NCBI RefSeq assembly: GCF_000378045.1 | Contig: NZ_KB899089.1 | Span: 124,001-188,000, forward strand | Direction of reading: 5' to 3' | Length of the DNA: 64,000 nucleotides | Origin: Marinobacterium rhizophilum DSM 18822 | GTDB lineage: Bacteria > Pseudomonadota > Gammaproteobacteria > Pseudomonadales > Balneatricaceae | Shown: in pieces, positions 48,568 to 56,381 of the stretch | Layout of the letters: each line of letters opens with the position of its first letter | Position numbering within the stretch: position 1 is the first letter of the stretch | Made by a program: the position numbers and the translations under genes | Notes under the pieces: model-generated | What the model was told of the DNA's origin: nothing | Databases searched by the model: none | What the model saw: only the letters and a program-made list of their open reading frames with translations

Positions 48568-50028
48568 CTATATTTGCCGGTACAGGATTTCTAGTCCCCG
48601 TTCGATCAATGCTTGCGAATAACCGGCAAAACCGATGACCAGCCCTTGACGGTCCTCCAGCCCGTCGTAGTAATGGGAAAGCGGCCGTATCCCGAGCCCC
48701 TGCGACTGCAATGCATGACAAAGAGCCTGATCGCAGCTCCCCGGCGGCAGCAGGAATACCGAATGCATGCCGCCATCAGCCTCGATACGTTTCAGACGAC
48801 CACCGAACATTTCCTCAACCCTGCGGTTGAGGAAATCCCGTCGTCGCCTGTACAGCTTGCGCATGCGCCGCACATGACTGGCGAACTGGCCCGAGGACAT
48901 GAACTCGGCCAGCGCCAGCTGCGGCAGGAGCGAAAGGCCGCCATCAATATAGCGCCGGGCATTATGAAAAGGCTCCACCAGGGCCTGGGGCAGGACCAGA
49001 TAGCCAAGACGGATCGACGGATGCAGAATACGGCTGAAGGTTCCGGCATAGAGCACGCAATGCTCTCCACCGAGTCCCTGCAGCGACGTCAGTGGCGGAC
49101 CATCGAAACGAAACTCGCTGTCGTAGTCATCTTCGATCAGCCAGCTGCCGGTTTCCGTGGCCCAGTTCAGCAACTCCAGCCGCCTCTGCAGACTGAGGGT
49201 ATAGCCCATCGGATAGTTTCGCGACGGTGTCAGCAGTGCCAATCGGGCCTCGGGGGACTGCGCCAGGCCGTTCTGCAGACAGAACCCCTCTTCATCGGCG
49301 GCTACCGCGATCCGATGCGCGCCGACCGCCGCGATGGCGCCGTCAATGCCCGGATACCCCGGTTGCTCCACCAGGATCGGATTGCCAGCATCCAGCAAAA
49401 GCTGCAGCGCCAGGTACAGCGCCTGCTGGGACCCCGAGCAGACCATGACCTGCTGCGCCTCGCAACGCACGCCTCGCACCACCTGCAGATAGCGGGCTAT
49501 CTCCCGTCTCAACGACTCAACGCCCATCGCTGAGGCTCTCGACTCATGCTTCATTCGGCGTCCGGCTCGACTCACCGCACGCTGCCACTGTGACCAGGGA
49601 AAGCTGTCCAGACAGGGACGCGCCGGCGCCAGCAGCTCGGGCCCCGCGCGGTCGTAGAGGCGACCGGGCGGCGGTAGCCGCCCTGCCATGGACGAGAGTC
49701 CAGCTGGGCGCCCGGCATCCCCCTGTTGCGCCAGCGTCTGTTCGCTGCGCAGTTCGGGCTCAGGAAGCTGAGCGGACACGAAGCTGCCTGCACCGTGACG
49801 CGTTTCTATATAGCCTTCGGCCTGCAGCATTTCGTAAGCGGTCTTAACCGTCGTACGGGAGATGCCCAGCGCCTGGCTGAGCGCCCGGCTGGCCGGCAGT
49901 TTGGCACCAGACGCCAGATCCCCGGTGAGAATGGCCTGCTGAAATGCGCGGAACAGGTTGCGATACTGCGCAACCCCGGTACCCGTCTTGAGAAACGGCA
50001 AAAAGAGCTCGGAGGGACTCTTAGTCAT
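48568..50028 (-). CDS. MocR/PdxR-type regulator (GntR HTH plus aminotransferase domain) lacking the PLP lysine
   Basis: A 486-residue fusion regulator. A GntR winged HTH (about 15-90; LPASRALSQALGISRTTVKT) is joined to a fold-type-I aminotransferase domain (about 110-480). Landmarks are MVCSGSQQALYLALQLLLDA, LTPSRNYPMGYTLSLQRR and DDYDSEFRFDG. The PLP-lysine segment reads LYAGTFSRILHPSIRLGYL, with Arg where MocR proteins have the Schiff-base Lys (codon CGT), so an internal aldimine cannot form in the usual way. It is divergent from a PPOX-family flavoprotein gene and probably controls it. How it senses its effector without the lysine is open. Confidence 0.88.
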   Translation of the reverse strand: MTKSPSELFLPFLKTGTGVAQYRNLFRAFQQAILTGDLASGAKLPASRALSQALGISRTTVKTAYEMLQAEGYIETRHGAGSFVSAQLPEPELRSEQTLAQQGDAGRPAGLSSMAGRLPPPGRLYDRAGPELLAPARPCLDSFPWSQWQRAVSRAGRRMKHESRASAMGVESLRREIARYLQVVRGVRCEAQQVMVCSGSQQALYLALQLLLDAGNPILVEQPGYPGIDGAIAAVGAHRIAVAADEEGFCLQNGLAQSPEARLALLTPSRNYPMGYTLSLQRRLELLNWATETGSWLIEDDYDSEFRFDGPPLTSLQGLGGEHCVLYAGTFSRILHPSIRLGYLVLPQALVEPFHNARRYIDGGLSLLPQLALAEFMSSGQFASHVRRMRKLYRRRRDFLNRRVEEMFGGRLKRIEADGGMHSVFLLPPGSCDQALCHALQSQGLGIRPLSHYYDGLEDRQGLVIGFAGYSQALIERGLEILYRQI

Positions 50029-50121: not shown

Positions 50122-50718
50122 ATGACCGCAATAGACATAACCGAAAGAACCCGCCTGAGGCGCGGGCCCAAACGGGCCTGCTATGACCGCAAGGCCATTT
50201 ACAACATCCTTGACGAAGCTTTTGTCTGCCATCTGGGCGCCAGTATGCACGGCGGCACGGCAGTTCAGCCCACGTTCCACTGGCGCATTGGTGACGAGCT
50301 CTACGTGCATGGATCGAGCAAGAATGGCCTGTTCCAGTCGATTCTGGCGGGAGAGACGGCCTGCGTCACGGTCACACTGCTGGATGGACTGGTCTTCGCC
50401 CGCTCCGCCTTCCACCACTCGGCGAATTTCCGCTCGGTAATGCTGTATGGCAAAGGGCGCCTGGTGGAAGACCCGGTCGAAAAGCGCAGCGCGCTCGACA
50501 GGATGCTGGAGAAGTTCAGCCCCGGCCGCTCGCGCGAGGCGCGACCGCCAAATGAGACCGAGATGAAAGCCACTGCGGTGATCGCCTTTGCGATCGAAGA
50601 GGTTTGCGCCAAGGTCCGCACCGGCGGCCCTGTCGACGACGAGGCGGATCTGTCACTGCCGGTCTGGGCCGGCGTCAAACCGGTAATCACCACGATCGGT
50701 GAGCTGATACCGGATTGA
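50122..50718 (+). CDS. PPOX-fold (pyridoxamine 5'-phosphate oxidase-like) flavoprotein
   Basis: A 198-residue protein of the FMN-binding split-barrel (PPOX/NimA-like) family. Landmarks are YDRKAIYNILDEAFVCHLG, VQPTFHWRIGDELYVHGSSK and ACVTVTLLDGLVFARSAFHH, as in the branch annotated as pyridoxamine 5'-phosphate oxidase family protein. It may bind FMN or F420 and act as a reductase or oxidase; the substrate is unknown. It is divergent from the MocR gene across 93 bp that contain GAGTGGGC / GCCCACTT half-sites. The 3' end of this gene recurs, diverged, about 265 bp downstream. Confidence 0.82.
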   Translation: MTAIDITERTRLRRGPKRACYDRKAIYNILDEAFVCHLGASMHGGTAVQPTFHWRIGDELYVHGSSKNGLFQSILAGETACVTVTLLDGLVFARSAFHHSANFRSVMLYGKGRLVEDPVEKRSALDRMLEKFSPGRSREARPPNETEMKATAVIAFAIEEVCAKVRTGGPVDDEADLSLPVWAGVKPVITTIGELIPD

Positions 50719-51000: not shown

Positions 51001-51429
51001 TTAGCGTTTGCGTTCCGCCATTTCGATAAGCGCGTTGATCCGGCCGATATTCATCGTCAGCTCATCGCGAAAGGAGGCCAATTCCTGGATTTTCCGATCG
51101 ACCGCGACCAGATGCTGTTTCAAAAGGCCGACGACCGCCCGCTTCCCCATAACGCCATCGTCTCCAACGAAATAAAGCTCGATCACCTCCGTGATTTCAT
51201 CGAGAGACAGGCCGATGGACTTCAACTTATGGATCAGTTCAAGGCGTTCGATCGCCGTTTCGTCATAGTAGCGATACCCGCTCCCCTTCCTCTGAGCAGG
51301 AAAGAGCAGTTTCTTTTGCTCGTAAAAGTGGATCGTACGCTGGCTCACATTGCAGCGCCGCGCCAGTTCGCCAATGGTAAAGACGTCTTTTGAGGTCTCT
51401 TCGATACTCGATGTGGCCTTATCGGTCAA
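51001..51429 (-). CDS. MerR-family transcriptional regulator of the downstream-named cluster
   Basis: A 142-residue MerR regulator. HTH and wing: FTIGELARRCNVSQRTIHFY and GSGYRYYDETAIERLELIHK, followed by a long dimerisation helix. There are no C-terminal metal-site cysteines, so the effector is probably organic. I choose the TTG at 51429 (TTGACCGATAAG), which has GGGAGG 4 bp upstream. An ATG at 51492 would sit only two bases after a TATACA -10 element (51495-51500), so it would not be in the transcript. It is the last gene of the five-gene minus-strand cluster and has its own promoter with a dyad operator, so it is probably autoregulated. Confidence 0.87.
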   Translation of the reverse strand: MTDKATSSIEETSKDVFTIGELARRCNVSQRTIHFYEQKKLLFPAQRKGSGYRYYDETAIERLELIHKLKSIGLSLDEITEVIELYFVGDDGVMGKRAVVGLLKQHLVAVDRKIQELASFRDELTMNIGRINALIEMAERKR

Positions 51430-51494
51430 ATGGCCTCCCAGGTTTTTCCGATTCTCCGTACATTGGCCATAGCGTACAGGGTCAGACTCCATCC

Positions 51495-51524
51495 TGTATA
51501 TCTACATTTGACGTGAACTGTAAA
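51495..51524 (-). promoter_or_regulatory. merR promoter with dyad operator in an 18-bp spacer
   Basis: Minus strand: -35 TTTACA (51519-51524), 18-bp spacer, -10 TATACA (51495-51500). A 20-bp dyad with arms TACATTT and AACTGTA spans 51503-51522, between the two boxes, the classic MerR layout. It includes the 15-bp motif ACGTCAAATGTAGAT (minus strand, 51500-51514), which recurs at 55723 and 55876. Confidence 0.7.
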
Positions 51525-51565
51525 GACGAAGCCCGCCAACCGGACGAGTCTTCAACGCCTGTATG

Positions 51566-53089
51566 TCAGTTACCGCTTTCGGTGAGTCGCACGACAGGGC
51601 GCCGGGCTGGCGCCAAGCCAAGATAGGCCGCGATGCAGCCCACCAGCGCAAAGGCCACTGCCCCCCACATACCAATTCCGAAGGCATCGGCATAGCCCTG
51701 CGAAAGAGCGGTTTCCACGACGGTCCTTGCGGCAGCGGGCAAGTTGGCTAGCGCTTCCGGACTCTTTACCAGCACATCCTGGGCGTCGAGGACTCCGCCG
51801 TCGACCAGGGCCGGATAGTCGCCAACGACCCTTGCCGTATTCAGCCGGTCATGGAAGTTCAGTACGGCCCCGATGACACCAAAGGCCAGCGCAGCGCCCA
51901 GTTGCCGCATGGTGTTGAGGATCCCTGAAGCCTGGCCCTGCTTTCCGTCCGGGGCGGAGATCAGGACCGCCTTGATGGCTGGCGAGATAACCAACGGCGC
52001 CCCGATACCGTAGAGCAGCATGGCGGCGAACGCCATGAGATAGCTGCGCTCGGCCGACGTCACAGCGAACAGAACCGCGGAGCTTGCGACCAGAAGCACA
52101 CCCAACCGGATAGGGGCGTGCGGCCCGGCGCGATCGGCCCAGATGCCGCCGAGACGGGCGACGACGAGAATTGGCAGACCGGCGGGAAGCAGCGACAACC
52201 CCGCCATCTGCGGCGACATGCCGAGCGCCACCTGGCTCCACAGCGCCCAGAAAGCGACGCACATGACACAGACCTGGGTCGTCAACAGGATCAGGTTGGC
52301 GCTTGAGAAGGCCTTATGGCGGAAAAGGGACAGATCGACCATGGCGAAGCGGGACGATCTCTGCAGCAGCAGAAAAAGTGTCAATCCGAGAACGGCGCAG
52401 GCAAAAAGGCCGAGCGTGTGCGGCGTTCGCCAACCCCACTCCACCGCCTGCATCAGCGCCACGATCAGGCCACCAAAACCGAAGATGAAACTGGCCAGGC
52501 TGAGCGGCTTGATGTCCGGCATACGCATGGGCTCCGTGTCCCCGGGGACCGCACGACGCACGATCAGGAATACCAGCAGGCCAAGCGGAGCGTTGAGGTG
52601 GAATATCCAGCGCCAGCTCAGCTGTTCGGCGATGAAGCCCCCCAGAAAGGGGCCGATGGCGAGGAAAAAGGCGCCATAAGCGGCGGACGTGCCCAAGGCT
52701 GCACCTTGCCGCTCCGGGGGAAAGACGCGGGCGATCAGCAGCGCGTAGGTGGCCAGCATCATCGCCGCCCCCACTCCCTGCACCGCCCGGGCGGCGATCA
52801 ACATTTCGCCACTGGCACTGAAACCGCAGCCCAGCGACGCCACGACGAAGACCGCCATGCCTGCATCGAAGACGCGGCGGGCACCCAGCCTGTCGGCCGA
52901 GTGGCCGGCGGGTAATACGAAGACGGCGAGCGTGAGGAAGAAGGCATTAAGCGTCCACTGCAGGGCGAGTGCTGAAATGCCGAATTCGGCCTGGATGGAC
53001 GGCAGGGTGACGGCCACGCCCGTTTCATCGATGAACGTCATCGACAGAAAGATCGACATGGCGATGGTGGTGAGCGTTGTTGGCGACAT
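51566..53089 (-). CDS. DHA2-type MFS multidrug exporter (EmrB/QacA-like)
   Basis: A 507-residue drug:H+ antiporter with fourteen membrane segments. Landmarks are TFIDETGVAVTLPSIQAEFG in TM1 (motif D1), LPAGHSADRLGARRVFDAGM (motif A) and AARAVQGVGAAMML (motif B), then FLAIGPFLGGFIAEQLSWRW (motif C, antiporter). It lies 109 bp after paralogue B and 73 bp before the merR promoter region, so it would be cotranscribed with the dioxygenase cluster. It may export the cluster's product or an inducer. Substrate unknown. Confidence 0.92.
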   Translation of the reverse strand: MSPTTLTTIAMSIFLSMTFIDETGVAVTLPSIQAEFGISALALQWTLNAFFLTLAVFVLPAGHSADRLGARRVFDAGMAVFVVASLGCGFSASGEMLIAARAVQGVGAAMMLATYALLIARVFPPERQGAALGTSAAYGAFFLAIGPFLGGFIAEQLSWRWIFHLNAPLGLLVFLIVRRAVPGDTEPMRMPDIKPLSLASFIFGFGGLIVALMQAVEWGWRTPHTLGLFACAVLGLTLFLLLQRSSRFAMVDLSLFRHKAFSSANLILLTTQVCVMCVAFWALWSQVALGMSPQMAGLSLLPAGLPILVVARLGGIWADRAGPHAPIRLGVLLVASSAVLFAVTSAERSYLMAFAAMLLYGIGAPLVISPAIKAVLISAPDGKQGQASGILNTMRQLGAALAFGVIGAVLNFHDRLNTARVVGDYPALVDGGVLDAQDVLVKSPEALANLPAAARTVVETALSQGYADAFGIGMWGAVAFALVGCIAAYLGLAPARRPVVRLTESGN

Positions 53090-53198
53090 GGGTGTTCCTT
53101 GAGCTCAGTTGGGGAGAGAAGCGGCCTGCCCGGATGCCGGGGCGCCGCGGCAGGGGGGCCGCCCAATCGGACGCCTTCCGGCTTTTCACCGCAGGGGC

Positions 53199-53837
53199 TT
53201 AATCGTTTACGGTCTGGATCAGGCGATCGACCCAGGGATCGTGCAACCACTGCTCAGTCATGCGGCGTTTGCGTTGCGAATCCCAGGAAATATCGCGCTC
53301 GAAGGAAACAATGCCACCGTCGTGACCGACGACTACCCAGGCCCAGGTTCCGGTTGTCGCGTCGAACATCTTCACACGAACGCCAATGGCGGCCCGGCTG
53401 CCGCCGGTTTCGCATTCAACGAAGGCGAAGCCACTGTGATGGGGCGGCTCCAGGGGCTCCTTCCTGAGCGGCTTCACCCAGCGTTCCTCCGCCCGCTTGG
53501 CGAGGTCCGGTGCCGCCGCAGCCAGAAACTCCCGGGCCCGCTGGAGTGCGACCTGTTCTTCGGGAACCGCATTGGAGTAGCGGCGATCCATATGGTGCAC
53601 GCCGTCAAGGCGCTCCTCTTCCAAGTTGATCAGCACAGAGAAATGTTCGCCGCCGAGACCGGTGTTGCGCCCATCGCTTCTTTCATGGCGCAGGAGCAGC
53701 AGCGGCCGGGCATCCTGGATCACCTTCCGCTGGCACGCCAGTACGTAACCGTCCGGTATGCAGAGATAACCTTCGATCAGTTTCAAGGCACGCATCAGTA
53801 CGGCAGCTTCGGTATTGGAGGCATTCATAATCGACAT
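53199..53837 (-). CDS. Uncharacterised protein, cytosolic paralogue B
   Basis: I do not recognise this family. The 212-residue protein (start 53837, or Met4 at 53828) shares with paralogue A (54973-55641) the blocks RNTGLGGEHFSVLI, APDL...W, WVVVGHDGGIVSFERDISW and RMTEQWLHD.W. It has no signal peptide, so it is probably cytosolic, whereas A is secreted. The conserved Gly-Gly-Glu-His, aromatic residues and Glu-Gln-Trp-Leu-His-Asp suggest a ligand or active site. It follows the dioxygenase by 25 bp and precedes the MFS exporter by 109 bp. Function unknown. Confidence 0.8.
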   Translation of the reverse strand: MSIMNASNTEAAVLMRALKLIEGYLCIPDGYVLACQRKVIQDARPLLLLRHERSDGRNTGLGGEHFSVLINLEEERLDGVHHMDRRYSNAVPEEQVALQRAREFLAAAAPDLAKRAEERWVKPLRKEPLEPPHHSGFAFVECETGGSRAAIGVRVKMFDATTGTWAWVVVGHDGGIVSFERDISWDSQRKRRMTEQWLHDPWVDRLIQTVND

Positions 53838-53862
53838 TCCATGTCTTCGTTAGGGTTTGGGA

Positions 53863-54910
53863 TCAAGCGGCGTCCGATCGGGGCGGCATGGCTCCGCCGC
53901 GTAGTGCACCGGCTTCGGTGCGGCCGTAAATGGCGGAAAAGTCCGGTGCCAACGGACGGCTGTTGGGTGTGCTGAGCCATAGACGATACAGCAGGCGCTT
54001 TTGCTCCGGCTCCTCGGTATCGTCGAACGCAGCCCGCCCGTGAAGGGTGACAAAGTTGTTGACCCACTGGATGTCGCCGGGCTCGAACGGAATGCGCACC
54101 AGCAGTTCCGGCGACAGGCACAGCGAATCGATCAGGTCCAGCGCCTCGATCTGCAGCTCGGTCAAGCGGGGCGTGCCCGGCAGCTCTTGGGCGGTTCGAA
54201 TGAAATGCCGCAGATAGCGGGCCGCGAAATAGCCTTGGTGCCGAGTAAACACCGGCAAGGCGTAGACATCGTTTCCCCCCCCCGGCTTCCCAGGCGGTGC
54301 GGCGGTGATAGAACGGTTGATAGAGAACTTCGGCCAGATCCGGGCGCTTTCGAAGAATAGCGTTGTGCAGGGCCGGGGCGCTGACCAGATAACTTTCGCC
54401 GCCCCTGATGGCGGTGCGCAGGCATAACAGACCTATGGCATCGCTGCGGTCGGTATGAAACGGCAGGCGATCGCTGGTCCGGGTTCCGCGGGCGGCGGTA
54501 TCCTTCAGCTTGTCGCCGCCGTCCCGCACCAGACCGACCCGCTCGCCCCTGGTGCTCTGCGGCAACAGTGTACCGAGGTACCGGCCGAGACCGGCGAAAA
54601 TGATCTTGAGATCGTCCTCACTGTAGTTTTTGACAGGAAGACCACGCATCATCGTGATGCCGACGCCGTTTTCCAGGCTCTCGCCGATGCCGCGCAAGCG
54701 CTCCGCCAGGCCATCCAGCGGAAAGTCGTCCAGCGTGAGTTCCGCCAGGTCGACGCTCCGGCGGGTAGCCAGTTTCAAGGCGGCGTCGATTTCAGCAAGG
54801 TCGCCGGGGCTAAAAATGTAATGCCAATCGGCCTGCTGGGACTGCAGCTGCGCAGCGGTCCAGCAAGCGGGATCATTCAGCGGCGTGATGACGGATGAGT
54901 CGTACTCCAT
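53863..54910 (-). pseudogene. TauD/TfdA-like Fe(II)/2-oxoglutarate dioxygenase, frame broken at a G9 tract
   Basis: A dioxygenase of about 348 residues in two frames. The first part starts at 54910 (MEYDSSVITPLNDPACW; AAGGAA upstream) and holds the iron motif RLPFHTDRSDAIG (His-x-Asp). It breaks at nine C residues (54275-54283; nine G on the coding strand). Reading with eight G continues as WEAGGGNDVYALPVFTRHQG, then GDIQWVNNFVTLHGRAAFDD, which carries the distal His, and YRLWLS. So one extra G shifts the frame. It may be a real phase-variable slip, a fixed null mutation or a homopolymer read error. It sits between the two paralogous genes in a MerR-controlled cluster. Substrate unknown. Confidence 0.85.
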
Positions 54911-54972
54911 GGTGCATTCCTTGTCAGATGAAGTGGAACGAAGTGAGGCTGATATCCCTGAGGTCATACACC

Positions 54973-55641
54973 TCAGCCCTGCTGCGGCACGTTGTCGGCC
55001 AGCCAGGCGTCATGAAGCCACTGTTCCGTACCGCGTTTGCCCGGGAAGGTGATCCACCGGACATCGCGTTCGAAGGTGACTATCTCGTCGTCGGCGCCGA
55101 CGACGACCCAGAAATAAAGACCGTCAGCGCGATTGCGGCATTTAACCTTCATGCCCGCAAGCGTCACCTCCTTTCGCGCCCCGCCTGCCGCAGCGGTGTG
55201 CACAGTCTCGTCATGCCGGGCAATCCACAGCACCCGCATGTCCCGCAACAGGTCGGGAGCGGTACGGCGCAGGTAGTCCATGGCAATGGACCGTGCCTTC
55301 TTCTCGTCGGGTAGGGCAGTGTCTTCGAATTTGACATCCATGCGGGTATAGCCTTTCAGAACACCGTTATCGCCGATGATGGCGCTGATATGCTCGCCGC
55401 CCAGGCCGGTATTGCCGCCGTCCAGGCGCTCATAACGAAGGAGGGTGGCAGGGGTGTCATCGACGTCGACCTTCAGCATTGCCGTGCGGTGATAGGTCTT
55501 GGGGAAGGAAATCGTCCTTAACGTTTGGGCAGCGCTTTCATTAAGCACCGCGACCTCCACTGCTGCGCTAACGGAGGAAACCAGCGCCAGGTGCATTGCA
55601 GCAGTAAGGATTCCGGCTTTGACTCGGTTCAGTGTCGCCAT
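54973..55641 (-). CDS. Uncharacterised protein, secreted paralogue A
   Basis: I do not recognise this family. A 222-residue protein with a Sec signal (MATLNRVKAGILTAAMHLAL, cut near SVSA-AV). GAGGAGA is about 9 bp before the ATG at 55641, which decides it over an earlier in-frame ATG at 55716. The mature region aligns with paralogue B: GGNTGLGGEHISAII, RTAPDLL...W, FWVVVGADDEIVTFERDVRW and TEQWLHDAWL. The pair suggests the same fold used on two sides of the membrane. It is first in the MerR cluster and has its own promoter at about 55700-55730. Confidence 0.82.
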   Translation of the reverse strand: MATLNRVKAGILTAAMHLALVSSVSAAVEVAVLNESAAQTLRTISFPKTYHRTAMLKVDVDDTPATLLRYERLDGGNTGLGGEHISAIIGDNGVLKGYTRMDVKFEDTALPDEKKARSIAMDYLRRTAPDLLRDMRVLWIARHDETVHTAAAGGARKEVTLAGMKVKCRNRADGLYFWVVVGADDEIVTFERDVRWITFPGKRGTEQWLHDAWLADNVPQQG

Positions 55642-55699: not shown

Positions 55700-55737
55700 A
55701 AATTAGCAAACAACATAATCTTACGTCAACTGTAGAT
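55700..55737 (-). promoter_or_regulatory. Promoter and operator motif upstream of paralogue A
   Basis: Minus strand: -35 TTGACG (55724-55729), 18-bp spacer, -10 TAATTT (55700-55705). The 15-bp motif, plus-strand ACGTCAACTGTAGAT (55723-55737), overlaps the -35 box. It differs at one position from the motif in the merR promoter. AATCT and AGATT arms flank it (55718-55739). Confidence 0.6.
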
Positions 55738-55875
55738 TGTTAAACGAGACTTGCAATACCCGACCAATGTCAGCCAACGGCCACCCCCTAATCCCCTTGT
55801 GCGCGGTCTACGGCGATAAAGGAGAATCGTTGCAATAATTAATAGCAGCGTGAAATGAACTTAAAAATCAACTTG

Positions 55876-55890
55876 ACGCAAAATGTAGAT
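55876..55890 (+). promoter_or_regulatory. Third copy of the MerR-cluster motif
   Basis: ACGCAAAATGTAGAT, plus strand, preceded by TTGACG (55873-55878). It differs at two positions from the copy at 51500 and at three from the copy at 55723. AAATC and GATTT arms flank it. It lies upstream of the truncated HAD frame and could act on either strand. Confidence 0.5.
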
Positions 55891-55913: not shown

Positions 55914-56381
55914 TTGTCGCATCTATCCCGGGAAACCGGATGGATCAAGGCCGACGAGATCATCGGGCGATTGCGACAAATGAGTGCTGACGGTGCCAGC
56001 CGCAAAGATGTCAATCGCGAATATTACCAAGCTTATGCGGGACTGAACCGAGATGAAGTTCGGTACCTGGCGCGTCGCTGGCTGGAAAGCATGCTGGCGG
56101 TAGGGGCACAGCATTTCTTTAATGGTGCGGTCTTGTCCCGTCTTCGCATGCATGCTGCCAACGGGGTGGAACCGGTTTTCGTCTCTGGCTCTGCCTTCGA
56201 CCTGCTGGAGCCGCTGGCGGCTCACCTGAGAGTGCGGCGGTGCTGTCCGACGCCGCACCGACCGCGTCAGGCAATCGTGTTTGCACAAACTCTCCAGGAA
56301 AAGGGTAATGCTTGGCATTCCACAAACGGTCATCTTGGCCGGCTTGGGATTCTGGCTGCTGATCGCAGCTATCAACAATAG
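55914..56381 (+). pseudogene. Truncated HAD-IB phosphatase fragment
   Basis: The frame 55914-56234 resembles the middle of HAD-IB hydrolases: WIKADEIIGRLRQMSADGAS, then YYQAYAGLNRDEVRYLARRW, and motif II GVEPVFVSGSAFDLLEPLAA. The N-terminal nucleophile motif DxDGT is missing; the frame begins with a TTG inside what would be the middle of the protein. After LAAHLRV the similarity stops and the frame runs on as low-value sequence to 56381, overlapping the DUF2165 start. So both ends are lost and it cannot be a working phosphatase. Confidence 0.6.

What the first reader, a model, noticed from the sequence alone, without database searches (positions are those of the whole stretch)
51001..55641. 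Uncharacterised paralogue pair around a Fe(II)/2OG dioxygenase, with exporter and MerR regulator
Two proteins of a family I do not recognise flank a TauD-like dioxygenase: A is secreted (signal peptide), B is cytosolic. They share blocks GLGGEH, WVVVG.D and TEQWLHD.W. All genes run the same way with a DHA2 exporter and a MerR regulator. This is the best candidate for an undescribed system in the window: an inducible pathway that modifies a small molecule and exports it, with matching binding or enzyme domains on both sides of the membrane.
Basis: partly seen in the sequence, partly recalled or inferred. Interest (0 to 1): 0.75.

Follow-up and report, generated by a model that had tools for sequence, protein, structure and literature searches.

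The report
Unnamed protein family beside AfsA signal genes
Two related, unnamed bacterial proteins sit in what looks like a MerR-switched export operon; many of their relatives lie next to genes of the type that makes butenolide signal molecules, and in this genome that synthesis half appears to have been lost.

Summary
Proteins A and B (54973-55641, 53199-53837, both minus) are true paralogues (37% identity, E 3e-34) flanking a TauD-like dioxygenase split over two frames, with a DHA2-like exporter and a MerR regulator. No Pfam or NCBIfam model passes its cut-off on either. Weak Pfam hits and two AlphaFold models point to a double PepSY-like fold.

The new point is what the family travels with. 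Of 19 loci compared, 14 have an MFS gene in the cluster, 9 a MerR and 7 a MarR. Nine have AfsA, HAD and DUF2165 beside the family gene. The window keeps DUF2165 and a HAD fragment, and its assembly has no AfsA. In Chromobacterium subtsugae an operon with the same gene order is the most strongly up-regulated at high density (PMC12114271, passages). An operator-like sequence lies before merR and before A and nowhere else in the genome with fewer than two mismatches (pattern drawn from these sites).

Best reading: the sensing, handling and export half of an AfsA-type butenolide module. The dioxygenase is an extra, in 2 of 19 loci. The family's own function is inferred.

The parts
51001..51492 (-). 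MerR-family regulator; true start may be internal (a TTG at 51429 preceded by GGGAGG; inference). No Cys after the HTH domain, so probably not a thiol/metal sensor (inference).
   Evidence: PF13411 E 6e-22; none of the NCBIfam matches listed reaches its cut-off; 48% to the MerR of L004
51501..51516 (+). operator-like site TCTACANTTGACGTNA upstream of merR
   Evidence: pattern drawn from the window's sites
51566..53089 (-). DHA2-like MFS exporter
   Evidence: PF07690 E 7e-48; EmrB/DHA2 subfamily model E 4e-61 but below its cut-off; 60% to the L004 exporter
53199..53837 (-). protein B, member of the unnamed family without a clear signal peptide
   Evidence: AF2 model pLDDT 83.8
53863..54910 (-). 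TauD-like Fe(II)/2OG dioxygenase, coding split over two frames at a run of nine C (54275-54283)
   Evidence: PF02668 in both frames; 54% and 61% to the intact L004 homologue in two pieces
54973..55641 (-). protein A, secreted-type member of the unnamed family
   Evidence: AF2 model pLDDT 81.4
55721..55736 (-). operator-like site upstream of A
   Evidence: pattern drawn from the window's sites
55874..55889 (-). third operator-like site (2 mismatches) beside the HAD fragment
55914..56280 (+). HAD-IB phosphatase fragment: the end with motif I and the C-terminal end missing
   Evidence: PF12710 positions 48-123 of 189, 27.1 bits against cut-off 27; tblastn with HADs of L004 and L006
56281..56787 (+). 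DUF2165 small membrane protein, apparently intact
   Evidence: PF09933 E 6e-15; 47% to L004 DUF2165

Best explanation
The locus is the inducible handling-and-export half of an AfsA-type (butenolide or gamma-butyrolactone-like) metabolite module that arrived by horizontal transfer and has since lost its synthesis half. In complete relatives, an AfsA-like hotdog enzyme would join a beta-keto acyl thioester to dihydroxyacetone phosphate, the HAD phosphatase would remove the phosphate, and an MFS pump would export the product (inferred from the known chemistry of AfsA). The unnamed family (A and B) has a predicted double PepSY-like fold and most likely binds the product or the exporter rather than catalysing a step: as a periplasmic partner where it is secreted, and as a cytosolic one where it is not. 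In the Pseudochrobactrum/window variant a second copy (B) and a 2OG dioxygenase were added, the latter probably hydroxylating the molecule before export by the DHA2-like pump. MerR binds TCTACAnTTGACGTnA before itself and before A and switches the unit on. Shown: paralogy, neighbourhoods, presence of operator-like sites, absence of AfsA from the assembly, truncation of HAD. Inferred: horizontal gain and loss, MerR binding, the molecule, the binding role, the hydroxylation.
For: 9 of 19 family loci have AfsA, HAD and DUF2165 adjacent (AfsA split over two frames in one), whereas AfsA by the profile A2 is in 1 of 329 genomes sampled from the phylum. L004 has the complete order AfsA-HAD-DUF2165-A-dioxygenase-B-DHA2 with a divergent MerR, and the window has the HAD fragment and DUF2165. 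AfsA absent from the window's genome while the same profile hits 7 of 10 genomes in the same call. C. subtsugae operon with the same gene order goes up together, log2FC 7.2-9.2 (PMC12114271, passages). Operator-like sites. PepSY-like fold. AfsA-type chemistry: PMC7756379 passages.
Against: Seven loci with intact family genes show no AfsA, HAD or DUF2165 in the fetched stretch (L011, L016, L046, L017, L048, L049, L050), so the ligand need not be an AfsA product. The AfsA-bearing loci are not independent (two close pairs). Fold matches to solved structures have E above 0.02 at best, B's next best after YpeB are copper amine oxidases and A's include RseB and LolA, and the two sequence halves show no detectable repeat. 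Invariant His/Arg/Glu/Lys residues (R69, H84, H143, K167, E191, R192) could equally mark an active site. The operator pattern was drawn from the sites it finds, and L004 has no such site at two mismatches. Window genes may be non-functional: dioxygenase split, HAD truncated.
Confidence: 0.45

Rival explanations
1. A stand-alone resistance/detoxification unit: MerR or MarR senses a toxic natural product, the MFS pump exports it, the family protein binds or traps it, and the dioxygenase inactivates it. The link with AfsA is secondary.
For: MarR-MFS-family gene on a conjugative Oligella plasmid that also carries sul2; MerR-MFS-family gene in Gilliamella without AfsA in the genome; MerR with a secreted-type family protein in L017, L048-L050, in L049 followed by another MFS gene; the pump named CdeAB-OprM in C. 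subtsugae is called a multidrug efflux pump (PMC7240160 passage).
Against: AfsA-HAD-DUF2165 beside the family gene in 9 of 19 loci from several classes; rise with the cell's own density in C. subtsugae rather than with a toxin (the figure legend names 9 h and 18 h samples, so growth phase is not separated in what I saw).
Confidence: 0.3
2. The family is an enzyme of the AfsA pathway itself, acting after AfsA and HAD (for example an isomerase, dehydratase or lactone hydrolase).
For: First gene of the co-induced operon in C. [quoted passage not shown] several invariant polar residues.
Against: I know of no catalytic PepSY-like domain (recalled; PMC2954215 section 3.3 describes inhibitors and binders); occurs without AfsA beside it; 9 of 19 sequences look secreted; Ruegeria's AfsA-HAD stretch has no family member.
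Confidence: 0.15
3. In this genome the locus is only a decaying remnant with no current function (compatible with the best explanation for its origin).
For: Dioxygenase in two frames, HAD truncated, AfsA gone; family gene also decayed in L051 and L052; 0 of 6 other genomes placed in the same genus have the family (one weak match there rejected).
Against: A, B, the exporter, MerR and DUF2165 are all open over their length, and operator-like sites stand before merR and A; the frame break lies in a homopolymer of a 58-contig assembly and may be a sequencing error.
Confidence: 0.3

Closest known systems
C. subtsugae ATCC 31532 operon U6115_04630-04665 (PMC12114271)
   Same: By gene order: family gene (their 'hypothetical protein'), AfsA-related hotdog protein, HAD-IB hydrolase, DUF2165, regulator, DHA2-type export pump.
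   Different: Window lacks AfsA and has only a HAD fragment; has MerR instead of MarR, a second family copy, a dioxygenase, no OMF/HlyD partners beside it. That U6115_04630 belongs to the family is by synteny with strain PRAA4-1 (L008), not by comparing its sequence.
Streptomyces A-factor / gamma-butyrolactone and butenolide clusters (AfsA with phosphatase); gladiostatin PBS domain (PMC7756379)
   Same: AfsA hotdog domain (PF03756 E 1e-16 in L006) with a phosphatase.
   Different: AfsA relatives with one matched AfsA stretch, beside an HAD-IB phosphatase, DUF2165 and the unnamed family. An ArpA-type receptor was not searched for.
PepSY / DUF4901 (YcdB, YcdC) / YpeB / BLIP-like fold
   Same: Predicted helix-plus-four-strands twice; B model matches YpeB 5boi prob 1.00, TM 0.48, E 0.027; DUF4901 is hit by 3 of 11 members, best E 3e-4.
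   Different: A and B do not pass Pfam's cut-off; own conserved C-terminal motif (FERDI.W...R.TEKWLHD.W); 10 of 19 sequences show no clear secretion signal.
FrbJ and 7n7v 'predicted hydroxylase' (TauD-like)
   Same: The two solved relatives of the intact L004 dioxygenase at E up to 0.001 (1e-44 and 7e-55).
   Different: Substrate unknown; here it lies between two family genes.

Membership tests
PepSY / DUF4901-type domain | match above Pfam cut-off | tested here: not met
   A: DUF4901 14 bits against 27; B: no DUF4901 or PepSY match. 3 of 11 members at E up to 5, best E 3e-4, scores against the cut-off not shown for those
PepSY / DUF4901-type domain | helix plus four-stranded sheet repeat | tested here: inconclusive
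   Both AF2 models show it; Foldseek against the PDB at best E 0.026-0.027, against viral models one unnamed siphovirus protein at E 3.5e-4; no sequence repeat by hhalign
AfsA-type butenolide/GBL cluster | AfsA hotdog gene present | tested here: not met
   No AfsA in window or genome; met in 9 of 19 related loci
AfsA-type butenolide/GBL cluster | product is a butenolide or butyrolactone | not testable with these tools
   needs metabolite analysis
MerR-regulated operon | MerR-family DNA-binding domain | tested here: met
   PF13411 E 6e-22
MerR-regulated operon | matching operator at the regulated promoters | tested here: inconclusive
   2 sites sharing 14 of 16 bases, before merR and A; no other match under two mismatches in 5.36 Mb, but the pattern was drawn from these sites. 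Similar sites in L048-L050 (0-1 mismatch) and L017 (2); none in L004. Binding not tested
DHA2 MFS exporter | MFS fold and DHA2-subfamily model | tested here: inconclusive
   PF07690 met; best EmrB/DHA2 model 207 bits against cut-off 230
TauD-like Fe(II)/2OG dioxygenase | HxD...H triad in one open frame | tested here: not met
   triad present but split over two frames in the window; the L004 homologue is one open frame

The most novel reading that the evidence does not exclude
The family is a new class of signal-handling protein of Gram-negative AfsA-type butenolide modules: a double PepSY-like protein that carries or gates the lactone across the envelope with an MFS pump, and that has repeatedly broken away with its MerR/MarR switch to become an eavesdropping or resistance unit in strains, like this one, that no longer make the molecule.
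Probability: 0.25. Interest if true: 0.75.

Novelty: new variant of a known kind. Interest (0 to 1): 0.55.

Why it matters
AfsA-type signal genes are best studied in actinomycetes (general knowledge); their role in proteobacteria is largely open (the C. subtsugae authors call their finding unexpected and unexplained). A recurrent companion family with exporter and regulator gives that question a handle: it says which genes to delete and where the molecule should accumulate. Strains that keep the handling half without the synthesis half, such as this one, are natural tests of whether the molecule is sensed by non-producers.

Tried and rejected
Matches dropped before counting loci: L012 Streptomyces (51 residues, E 4e-4); G006/L002 (86 residues at 31%, E 2.5e-4, inside a longer frame that looks like an FAD monooxygenase by eye); G509/L031 (E 5e-4 inside a 1358-residue frame). 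Viral contigs and phages gave no relative. PADLOC gave nothing for five proteins. No relative of the family in the PDB by sequence at E up to 1. Greedy longest-ORF calling mislabels high-GC loci; replaced by homology-based calling. One search was a translation in the wrong frame. One search failed on one wrong coordinate and was repeated without it. EmrR/EmrCAB of C. violaceum (PMC6249546, passages) was considered as the matching locus and not pursued: the passages shown name no AfsA or HAD neighbours. Klebsiella michiganensis (PMC12708576, one passage) and Ruegeria show another AfsA-tautomerase-HAD-LysR-MFS cluster; the 20.7 kb fetched from Ruegeria has no family member.

Literature: searches. 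The family has no name to search for, so absence from print is not claimed beyond these. Papers seen: passages only of PMC12114271, PMC7756379, PMC6249546, PMC12708576, PMC7240160; outline and one section of PMC2954215; the rest as listings.
Full report
Observation. A and B share 37% identity over about 200 residues, E 3e-34, including all three quoted blocks. The block GLGGEH by itself also occurs in an unrelated MocR-type protein of the same window (48568-50028), but the full alignment leaves no doubt about paralogy. The dioxygenase matches TauD in two frames meeting at nine C.

What A and B are. Neither has a Pfam or NCBIfam match above cut-off. A family alignment of 11 members has 23 invariant columns, among them R69, H84, S86, H143, K167, E191, R192 and the C-terminal R203, E206, W208, D211, W213 of A. 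DUF4901 (YcdB/YcdC repeat) is found in 3 of 11 members, best E 3e-4. AlphaFold models (pLDDT 81 and 84) show a helix and four strands, twice (my reading of the strand lists). The A model's best solved matches are BLIP-like periplasmic proteins (4poi E 0.026, 4hbr 0.043), then RseB and LolA (E 0.1 and above). The B model's best is YpeB (5boi, prob 1.00, TM 0.48, E 0.027), followed by many copper amine oxidases with TM 0.27. Among viral models one unnamed siphovirus protein matches A at E 3.5e-4. The evidence for the fold is therefore moderate. Sequence halves do not align. A 2010 paper groups PepSY, BLIP and DUF2874 as likely binders and inhibitors (PMC2954215, outline and section 3.3).

Where the family occurs. 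It is rare: 2 of 398 genomes of a phylum sample, own included; own only, 1 of 96, in the relatives search once a spurious second match is dropped; 1 of 12, the seed; 2 of 61, seed included, after dropping a weak third match; 4 of 392, three of them already known; 6 of 394, seed included; 2 of 296, seed included; one plasmid of 72,556; no phage or viral contig. In some searches at most seven first-look candidates per genome were scored (at most ten), so these are lower bounds. One scan of the genome-contig collection gave nine loci, eight kept.

Neighbours. I compared 19 loci: the window, L004-L011, L016, L017, L046-L053. AfsA with HAD and DUF2165 is beside the family gene in 9 (L004-L010, L047, L053; the AfsA of L010 is split over two frames). 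An MFS gene lies in 14 clusters: 13 of the AraJ-like or DHA2 kind (in L008 only the downstream DHA2 pump) and L049, where a different MFS gene starts 289 bases after the family gene. MerR is adjacent in 9 (window, L004, L010, L011, L017, L048, L049, L050, L053; that of L050 is broken; that of L004 lies next to AfsA at the other end of the block). MarR is present in 7 (L005-L009, L016, L047). L046 has TetR, a short-chain dehydrogenase and MFS. The family gene is decayed in L051 and L052. Dioxygenase and a second family copy occur in 2 (window, L004). The loci are not independent: L006/L007 and L009/L047 are close pairs.

The AfsA link. The neighbour scores PF03756 E 1e-16 in Rugamonas and 2e-14 in Pseudochrobactrum. 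The AfsA profile finds 1 of 329 genomes in a phylum sample, so the pairing is far above background; that one genome had no family member. The profile hits 7 of 10 chosen genomes but not the window's, nor those of L017 and Gilliamella. The window still has DUF2165 and a HAD fragment lacking its catalytic N-terminus, and a third operator-like site, with two mismatches, beside that fragment. Compared with L004 the block A-dioxygenase-B-exporter is turned around relative to HAD-DUF2165, and MerR lies at its far end. I read this as rearrangement with loss of AfsA and part of HAD (inference).

Independent evidence. A transcriptome of C. subtsugae ATCC 31532 reports the operon hypothetical-AfsA-HAD-DUF2165-MarR-OMF-HlyD-DHA2 as its most strongly up-regulated one, log2FC 7.2 to 9.2; the authors suggest A-factor-like synthesis and leave the first gene unexplained (PMC12114271, passages). 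The samples compared are 9 h (QS-) and 18 h (QS+), so growth phase is not separated in what I saw. The first gene corresponds by order to the family gene in L008. AfsA-like domains condense 3-keto thioesters with DHAP to phosphorylated butenolides (PMC7756379, passages).

Regulation. The two sites before merR and before A share 14 of 16 bases. The pattern TCTACANTTGACGTNA was drawn from them, so their exact match is by construction; what is informative is that no other place in 5.36 Mb matches with none or one mismatch. With two mismatches there are seven more, two of them in this locus (one the other strand of the merR site); the backwards control gives nine in all, not broken down by mismatch. 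Within the window at three mismatches, four matches are not unusual (14 of 100 shuffles reach four). In other loci, searched with a looser pattern, sites with no mismatch lie between MerR and the family gene in L048, L049 and L050, with one mismatch before MerR in L048 and L049, and with two mismatches between them in L017. Matches with two mismatches also fall elsewhere in L017, L048, L050, L051, L010 and L011, which look like chance, so the L017 site is weak. L004 has none.

Compartments. A 15-residue hydropathy peak of 1.7 or more near the N-terminus is seen in 9 of 19 sequences, A among them; L050 (1.29) is unsure. B (1.40), both L004 copies and the six AfsA-cluster copies of L005-L009 and L047 stay below it. 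So secretion varies within the family and the pairing of one secreted with one cytosolic copy is not conserved in L004. In the tree, A pairs with L004-A (95/93) and B with L004-B (100/100), so the duplication is older than these two clusters.

Origin. The family is in none of the 6 other genomes placed in the window's genus and none of the 53 others from its family in that sample, which suggests horizontal gain.

Mechanism. I favour a MerR-switched handling-and-export unit for an AfsA-type lactone, with A and B as binding proteins. The rival of a free-standing resistance unit is close behind, because seven loci with intact family genes show no AfsA beside them and one is on a conjugative plasmid. 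An enzyme role is less likely but open.

Noticed in passing
window 48568-50028 and 50122-50718: GntR/aminotransferase (MocR-type) regulator that by coincidence contains GLGGEH, the paralogues' first block, divergent from a pyridoxamine-phosphate-oxidase-like gene.
   Followed up: partly
L016 8071-10531 (NZ_CP065724.1): MarR-MFS-family gene on a conjugative Oligella ureolytica plasmid that also carries sul2.
   Followed up: partly
L019 9968-12590 (Ruegeria pomeroyi megaplasmid): A second kind of proteobacterial AfsA cluster: AfsA, a hypothetical protein, tautomerase, HAD-IB, with LysR, aldo/keto reductase and MFS nearby, without the family; a similar gene list is given for a Klebsiella michiganensis island (PMC12708576, passage).
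   Followed up: partly
L017, L048, L049, L050: MerR with one secreted-type family protein and no AfsA beside them: the smallest form of the system. L049 has another kind of MFS gene 289 bases downstream.
   Followed up: partly
L051, L052: Broken family genes; L051 keeps flanks that look like those of L048 and L050 (by eye), so the gene seems to be lost in place.
   Followed up: no
L046 3975-7290: TetR, short-chain dehydrogenase, MFS and family gene: another regulator class for the same pair.
   Followed up: partly
no window position: BFVD entry A0A8S5SLL9: An unnamed siphovirus protein is the best structural match to A among viral models (E 3.5e-4, 14% identity).
   Followed up: no
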